From assembly GCA_025458125.1 (NCBI GenBank), contig JALOTA010000009.1:1-41102 (forward strand): a DNA stretch of 41,102 bases, in the 5' to 3' direction. Both the position numbers and the translations under genes were made by a program. Shown here piece after piece: positions 39,167 to 41,102 of the stretch. A model generated the notes under the pieces. It did not search any database. It saw only the letters and a program-made list of their open reading frames with translations, and was not told the DNA's origin. Origin of the DNA: Hyphomicrobium sp. (GTDB taxonomy: Bacteria; Pseudomonadota; Alphaproteobacteria; Rhizobiales; Hyphomicrobiaceae). Numbering within the stretch: the stretch's first letter is position 1; every line of letters begins with the position of its first letter.

Positions 39167-40543
39167 ATGTCGAACAGCATGATTTCCCTTTCGCCTACCT
39201 TCGCAGCGCCCACTCGATCACCGCGATGTGCCCGGCAGTCATCAAGTTGGATGGCCGGGGGCCTTGGTCTCGTTGTCGCGGCGATAAGCGCGCTTCCGGC
39301 TGCGGCGCAACTCACCGGGCGTCAATCGGAAGGGTCGCTGTCGCCCATTCCGATCGCCATTCCCGAGTTTGTCGGCGACGATCCGCGGCTGGCGACGGAG
39401 ATTTCCAACGTCGTGGCCAACGATCTGGAAAGTTCCGGCCTTTTCAAACCTTTGGATCGCGGTTCATTTCTTGAAGCGGTGCGTGACATCAATCAACCGC
39501 CGCGAATGGTCGACTGGCGCTCAATCGGCGCGGACGCGCTGGCGGTTGGGCGCGTAACCCGGGATGCCAGTGGCCGGCTGTCTTCGGAGTTCCGGCTGTG
39601 GGACGTCGCGACGGGCAAGCAGCTCGCCGGCCAGCGATTTGCGACGGCGGAGGCCAACTGGCGCCGCGTCGGGCACATCATCGCCGACCAGATCTACGAA
39701 CGTCTGACGGGTGAGAAGGGCTATTTCGACAGCCGTGTGGTCTTCATCGACGAGACCGGTCCCAAGGACAAGCGCGTCAAGCGGCTCGCCATTATGGATC
39801 AGGACGGCGCCAACGTCCGAATTCTCTCAAAAGGCGCGGAGATCGTTCTCACGCCGCGGTTTTCGCCGACCCGTAACGAAATCACGTTCATGTCCTACAC
39901 GCGCGACCAGCCGCGCGTGTTTTTGCTCAACCTGGAGACCATGCAACGCGAAGTCGTCGGGGACTTTCCCGGCATGACGTTCGCGCCACGTTTTTCCCCT
40001 GATGGCCAGCGGGTGATCTTCTCCGTGCAGTCGGAGGGTTCGAGTTCGATCTTCGAAATGGACCTGAGGACCCGCCAGACCCGGCGCGTCACCCAGACCG
40101 ACGCCATCGACACGGGGCCCTGCTATTCGCCAGATGGGCGGCAGATCGTGTTCGAGAGCGACCGGGACGGGACCCAGCAACTCTACCTAATGAACTCGGA
40201 CGGCTCGGGGGTTCGCCGGCTCAGCTACGGGGAGGGGCGTTACTCGACGCCGGTCTGGTCCCCGCGCGGCGACTATATTGCCTTTACAAGGCAGCTTGCG
40301 GGACGTTTCATCATCGGTGTCATGCGCCCCGACGGCTCGGGCGAACGGGTGCTGACCGACGGATTTCATAACGAAGGCCCGACGTGGTCCCCCAACGGGC
40401 GAGTCGTGATGTTCTTCCGGGAAGGCCAGGGACCGAACGGCGGACCGCGAATCTTTACGGTCGACATCACGGGCTACAACGAACGAGTCATTGCAACGCC
40501 ATCGTTCGCGTCTGATCCCGCCTGGTCGCCTCTCCTGAATTGA
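39167..40543 (+). CDS. tolB: TolB
   Basis: Signal-like N-terminus, [15 protein letters not shown]40-like beta-propeller repeats ([25 protein letters not shown]). Confidence 0.96.
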
Positions 40544-40566: not shown

Positions 40567-40813
40567 GGAATATCCGGCAATCTGTTGATCAGTCCGGGGC
40601 GTCACGGCCTCGGTCTTTTCTTGTGTAATTCCAAACGGTTGATTAACTTTCGCCTGGGCGGAGTTTTTGACCTGAGGAGCGTAAAACACGGCGTTGCATT
40701 TTCGCATCTAGGTTGGTGGAAAACGGCTCTCGAGCCGCCTCCGTTCTTGATCGAACAAGTGCATGCCGGTACCCCAGTATGTGGTTGGGCGTCAGTAGCA
40801 ACAGGAGATCGCT

Positions 40814-40988
40814 ATGCAGGGTATCAAGGGGCTTATCGTTCTCTCCGCCGCCATCATGGCTGTTGCTGGGGCTTATCGTTCTCTCCGCCGCCATTGTGGC
40901 TGTTGCTCTTGGCGCTTGCCGTCGCGAAGAAGCGGCACCGATGAAGCTCGGTGCCGAGTTTCCGGCCGCCACGAATGTGGCTCGCTAA
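40814..40988 (+). pseudogene. Small entericidin-like lipoprotein gene interrupted by tandem duplication
   Basis: ATG at 40814 with RBS ACAGGAGA; lipobox LGACRREEA is in a different frame because of a 40-bp duplication. Confidence 0.65.
40828..40907 (+). repeat. Tandem direct repeat, 2 x 40 bp (two mismatches)
   Basis: GGGGCTTATCGTTCTCTCCGCCGCCATCATGGCTGTTGCT then GGGGCTTATCGTTCTCTCCGCCGCCATTGTGGCTGTTGCT. Confidence 0.97.
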
Positions 40989-41028
40989 TCCCTCCCGGTT
41001 TTGTCTGGGACACTACAGGAGAAAGACT

Positions 41029-41102
41029 ATGAAGGGCGCTATCGTTCTCGCCGCCGCTATCGTGGCCGTTGCTCTCGGCGCTTGCCGCCGTGAAGAAGCT
41101 GC
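41029..41102 (+). CDS. Small lipoprotein, intact paralog (truncated by window end)
   Basis: RBS AGGAGA; MKGAIVLAAAIVAVALGACRREEA with lipobox LGAC. Confidence 0.75.
   Translation, partial: MKGAIVLAAAIVAVALGACRREEA

What the first reader, a model, noticed from the sequence alone, without database searches (positions are those of the whole stretch)
40814..40988. 40-bp tandem duplication puts a small lipoprotein gene out of frame (possible phase-variation switch)
Two adjacent 40-bp units (40828-40867, 40868-40907) differ at two positions. Because 40 is not a multiple of 3, translation from ATG 40814 leaves the lipoprotein frame. Removing one unit restores MQGIKGLIVLSAAIVAVALGACRREEAAPMKLGAEFPAATNVAR*, closely matching the paralog at 41029. 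The two mismatches argue against a trivial assembly stutter. Copy-number change could switch the ORF on or off; this last step is inference.
Basis: partly seen in the sequence, partly recalled or inferred. Interest (0 to 1): 0.6.

Follow-up and report, generated by a model that had tools for sequence, protein, structure and literature searches.

The report
Probable assembly artefact in lipoprotein gene
A 40-base stretch is written twice in a small lipoprotein gene next to tolB in a draft metagenome-assembled bacterial genome, but none of the related genomes checked shows it, and it looks like two overlapping assembly pieces joined without merging rather than a genetic on/off switch.

Summary
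Two abutting 40-bp units (40828-40867, 40868-40907; 38/40 identical) shift the frame of a 44-aa lipoprotein gene (40814-40988) between tolB and a second lipoprotein gene (from 41029). The phase-switch reading is not supported. The window is a whole contig of a fragmented, MAG-like Hyphomicrobium-like genome (180 contigs, 89% complete, 5% contaminated). It ends 195 bp past the duplication, inside the second lipoprotein gene, which resumes on another contig through an exact 36-bp overlap. All five congeners carry one unit and an intact gene. None of 63 named Hyphomicrobiaceae tolB loci has a tandem duplication in the gene. The junction is blunt, with no extra base of homology. In sampled contigs of the same genome most overlapping contig ends share exactly 99 bp (IDBA-UD-like, k=100), but two pairs share only 36 and 29 bp without being merged. 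A second blunt 30-bp duplication in a conserved gene is absent from congeners and from the genome's own paralogue. The simplest account is an unmerged overlap between two alleles of the same site, a documented type of local assembly error. The real gene is then probably intact. Reads would decide. A genuine private duplication remains possible (about 20%).

The parts
39167..40543 (+). tolB (Tol-Pal beta-propeller protein), upstream neighbour
   Evidence: NCBIfam TIGR02800 E=2.6e-132; Pfam TolB_N and PD40; tolQ and tolR also identified upstream
40673..40813 (+). conserved non-coding leader or promoter region of the lipoprotein gene, with ribosome-binding site AGGAG near 40803
   Evidence: blocks conserved across 22 Hyphomicrobiaceae loci; no Rfam match; almost no covariation
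40814..40988 (+). first small lipoprotein gene (lipo1), out of frame as written because of the extra 40 bp
   Evidence: intact single-unit orthologues at the same place in 5 of 5 congeners; profile hits at 40814-40873 and 40869-40985
40828..40867 (+). unit 1 of the 40-bp duplication (allele with ATCATGG)
   Evidence: absent from congeners
40868..40907 (+). unit 2 of the 40-bp duplication (allele with ATTGTGG, the form nearest to relatives)
41029..41102 (+). second small lipoprotein gene (lipo2), truncated by the contig end
   Evidence: contig C173 is 41102 bp; the gene continues on contig C152 (L002)
41067..41102 (+). last 36 bp of the contig, identical to the first 36 bp of contig C152, which carries the rest of lipo2 and pal: an unmerged overlap
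   Evidence: pal by TIGR02802

Best explanation
The tandem copy is most likely an assembly artefact. In the organism, tolB is followed by two intact tandem small-lipoprotein genes and then pal, as in its relatives. Short reads could not be assembled cleanly through the pair of similar genes, probably because of sequence variation between strains or low coverage. One piece ended inside lipo1 and the next piece began 40 bp earlier in the same gene, from a slightly different allele. They were joined end to end without merging the overlap, so 40 bp are written twice with two differences and the frame is shifted. The next join, into lipo2 36 bp from the end, was not made at all, and there the contig stops. 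Shown: blunt repeat, single unit in relatives, contig end inside lipo2, unmerged short end overlaps in the same genome, a second blunt private duplication. Inferred: the joining step, the strain alleles, and the identity of the assembler.
For: Fragmented genome of 180 contigs, 89.2% complete, 5.15% contaminated; the contig ends 195 bp past the repeat. Window end and C152 start overlap by exactly 36 bp. Of 17 end-overlap pairs among 183 contig ends examined, 13 are 99 bp, 2 are 88, and single pairs are 36 and 29 bp. Overlaps of 99 bp are expected for IDBA_UD with maxK 100 (PMC10914622). Duplicate sequence left at scaffold joins despite overlap, seen with IDBA-UD, is described in PMC7111523. Zero extra homology at the junction. 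All 5 congeners have one unit; no tandem duplication in the gene in 63 named tolB loci; family-wide profile matches listed have no internal stops. A second blunt exact 30-bp duplication in contig C52, in a gene of a di-haem-cytochrome-like protein, is missing from 4 congeners and from the genome's own paralogue. Contigs of some other genomes also begin or end inside lipo2 (L088, L047, L066; G087:C74), so the gene pair looks like a recurrent assembly break point.
Against: No reads were available, so read support was not tested. The repeat has no Ns, whereas the published error type has Ns at the join. The 80-bp array is shorter than the inferred k of 100, so a real array covered by reads could have been assembled correctly. 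Only two candidate artefacts of this kind were found in 1.36 Mb examined. Tandem duplications that look natural also occur in this genome.
Confidence: 0.77

Rival explanations
1. A genuine, recent tandem duplication private to this strain or species has inactivated lipo1. It is an ordinary loss-of-function mutation, perhaps tolerated because lipo2 is a near-paralogue.
For: The repeat lies inside a contig with no Ns. Other short tandem duplications exist in this genome. The number of lipoprotein copies varies from one to three among relatives, so loss of one copy is tolerable.
Against: It would be the only broken lipo1 seen in a gene otherwise intact in the family. There is no junction microhomology. 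The remainder of lipo1 shows no decay: unit 2 onward is open and conserved to the stop. The location next to a contig break is a suspicious coincidence.
Confidence: 0.19
2. A phase-variation switch: gain or loss of one 40-bp unit by recombination or slippage turns the lipoprotein on and off.
For: 40 is not a multiple of 3, so unit number would decide the frame.
Against: No relative has more than one unit. There are only two units and they are imperfect. No unit-number variation has been seen anywhere. A small lipoprotein beside Tol-Pal is not a typical phase-variable surface antigen (general knowledge).
Confidence: 0.03
3. The shifted 72-aa ORF is a real product, and its TGA overlapping the ATG of lipo2 couples translation of the two genes.
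For: The ORF is open and ends at 41032, overlapping the lipo2 start codon at 41029.
Against: It depends wholly on the duplication and so has no counterpart in relatives. No Pfam or NCBIfam match.
Confidence: 0.01

Closest known systems
Local assembly errors of short-read metagenome assemblies, with duplicate sequence left at a join of overlapping pieces (PMC7111523)
   Same: An end-to-end repeat of an overlap, in a fragmented draft genome whose contig-end overlaps fit IDBA-UD, close to a contig end, absent from relatives
   Different: The published description has Ns between the duplicate flanks; here there are none, and read support could not be examined
Phase variation by change in tandem-repeat number
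   Same: Unit length is not a multiple of three, so unit number would set the frame
   Different: Only two imperfect 40-bp units, no variation in number in any relative, and no population evidence
Tol-Pal gene cluster (tolQ-tolR-tolA-tolB-pal)
   Same: The lipoprotein genes lie between tolB and pal, downstream of tolQ and tolR
   Different: The small lipoproteins are an extra gene type that no Pfam or NCBIfam model describes

Membership tests
Phase-variable gene by tandem-repeat number | Repeat number varies between strains or cells | tested here: not met
   One unit in 5 of 5 congeners; no tandem duplication in the gene in 63 named loci. Variation within the source population could not be tested.
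Phase-variable gene by tandem-repeat number | Array of several near-identical units prone to slippage | tested here: not met
   Two units, 95% identical
Phase-variable gene by tandem-repeat number | A change of one unit changes the reading frame | tested here: met
   40 bp; frames read
Assembly artefact (unmerged overlap) | Repeat absent from relatives | tested here: met
Assembly artefact (unmerged overlap) | Blunt junction without extra homology | tested here: met
Assembly artefact (unmerged overlap) | Unmerged short end overlaps elsewhere in the same assembly | tested here: met
   36-bp and 29-bp overlaps against the usual 99
Assembly artefact (unmerged overlap) | Junction lacks support from reads | not testable with these tools
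   no reads available
Bacterial lipoprotein | Hydrophobic signal peptide ending in a lipobox with Cys | tested here: met
   ..VALGAC in lipo1 and lipo2; Gly-Ala-Cys invariant in the 18-row alignment
Described lipoprotein family (Pfam or NCBIfam) | Score above a curated cut-off | tested here: not met
   only weak hits below the cut-offs

The most novel reading that the evidence does not exclude
A real two-unit array switches a small Tol-Pal-linked lipoprotein on and off by 40-bp unit loss in this one lineage.
Probability: 0.03. Interest if true: 0.45.

Novelty: not a real feature. Interest (0 to 1): 0.1.

Why it matters
It matters mainly as a caution. A frame-breaking imperfect tandem duplication in a draft metagenome assembly can mimic a phase-variation switch, and mismatches between the copies do not exclude an assembly fault. 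The by-product of more lasting value is a small, undescribed lipoprotein family kept between tolB and pal across Hyphomicrobiaceae.

Tried and rejected
Rfam scan of the region: no match. Pfam and NCBIfam for the lipoprotein and the shifted ORF: nothing above the cut-offs. Consensus fold of the leader: 17 pairs, only one with a two-sided change, so a structured RNA is not supported. The one N gap found (L140) shows no overlap of its flanks, so it neither supports nor weakens the join hypothesis. In one search the pal query was read in a wrong frame; one search replaces its pal counts. Literature searches for this lipoprotein gave nothing relevant.

Full report
OBSERVATION. The duplication is present exactly where reported: 40828-40867 and 40868-40907, 38 of 40 positions identical, none expected by chance. 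It shifts the frame of the gene that starts at 40814. The two mismatches are adjacent (40855-40856, CA in unit 1, TG in unit 2). The array is exactly 2.0 units long, and the match at offset 40 ends at both outer edges, so there is no junction microhomology.

CONTEXT. The window is the whole of contig C173 of a 2.92-Mb genome in 180 contigs, 89.2% complete and 5.15% contaminated. The relatives found by sequence are Hyphomicrobium and other Hyphomicrobiaceae, mostly MAGs. Gene order is tolQ, tolR, a tolA-like gene (assigned by position and composition only), tolB, lipo1, lipo2. The contig stops at 41102, inside lipo2 and 195 bp after the repeat. Contig C152 begins with the same 36 bases, completes lipo2 (..MKLGADLPVASEAR*) and carries pal.

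RELATIVES. All five congeners have a single unit and an intact 44-aa lipo1 followed by an intact 40-aa lipo2. In the family 97 of 103 genomes have a match to the lipoprotein profile, and none of the matches listed has an internal stop. Of 71 named loci, 63 have tolB upstream and 56 have both tolB and pal. In those 63 the only tandem duplications between tolB and pal lie outside the matched lipoprotein gene (L046, L049, L087). The two-unit form is thus seen in this one assembly only.

IS IT THE ASSEMBLY? I examined 1.36 Mb of the same genome in stretches. Of 17 overlapping pairs of contig ends, 13 share exactly 99 bp, the signature of a de Bruijn assembler with largest k of 100 (IDBA_UD) or 99 (metaSPAdes, MEGAHIT) (PMC10914622). 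Exceptions are two of 88 bp, one of 36 bp (this window's end) and one of 29 bp. Both ends of C152 are exceptional (36 and 88). Short unmerged overlaps therefore do exist in this assembly, and their lengths resemble the repeat here. There is one other blunt perfect duplication in a conserved gene, 30 bp in contig C52. The homologous stretch is about 30 bp shorter in four congeners and in the genome's own paralogue. [quoted passage not shown] Contigs of some other genomes also begin or end inside lipo2 (L088, L047, L066, G087:C74), so this gene pair looks like a recurrent break point.

INFERENCE. An overlap of 40 bp between two pieces carrying slightly different alleles, laid end to end, predicts each feature: a blunt repeat, two point differences, a broken conserved gene, a nearby contig end and absence in relatives. 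The two differences are both transitions; one is silent and one is Val/Met in the hydrophobic signal peptide, as expected of strain alleles. A genuine private duplication predicts the same sequence without explaining the coincidences. I put about 0.77 on the artefact, 0.19 on a real inactivating duplication and 0.03 on a switch. The assembler's identity and the joining step are inferred; read support could not be tested.

WHAT IS REAL. The lipoprotein pair is a small conserved family without a Pfam or NCBIfam model, in one to three tandem copies between tolB and pal, preceded by a conserved non-coding region of about 130 bp. Its function is not known from anything found here; a role in the Tol-Pal envelope system is suggested only by position.

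Noticed in passing
window 40814-41102 and L002 1-84; loci L031-L101: An undescribed family of about 40-45-aa lipoproteins (LGAC-RRE...P-(M/L)KLG...) lies between tolB and pal in most Hyphomicrobiaceae, in one to three tandem copies, with no Pfam or NCBIfam model.
   Followed up: partly
window 40673-40813: The non-coding region before lipo1 has blocks conserved across the family (GCATTTTCGCATC, CTTGATC, GGTACCC, AGGAG). It looks like a promoter or leader; no Rfam match and little covariation.
   Followed up: partly
L211 2359-2418 (contig C52): A perfect blunt 30-bp tandem duplication, in frame, in a conserved gene; the matching stretch in congeners and in the genome's own paralogue is about 30 bp shorter. 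Probably the same kind of assembly fault.
   Followed up: yes
L225 4664-4779 and L219 11717-11824: Tandem repeats of 54-56 bp with the core CAGGGAGCCGGCCG, possibly an intergenic palindromic repeat family in this genome.
   Followed up: no
L081, L091-L094, L099, L101 and G000:C125:4848-4967: More distant relatives of the lipoprotein; the L loci named here have no tolB match beside them, and the neighbourhood of the C125 match was not examined.
   Followed up: no
L140 (contig C80): Contig with a 14-N gap whose composition looks unlike the rest by eye; it may be a contaminant in this 5%-contaminated bin.
   Followed up: no
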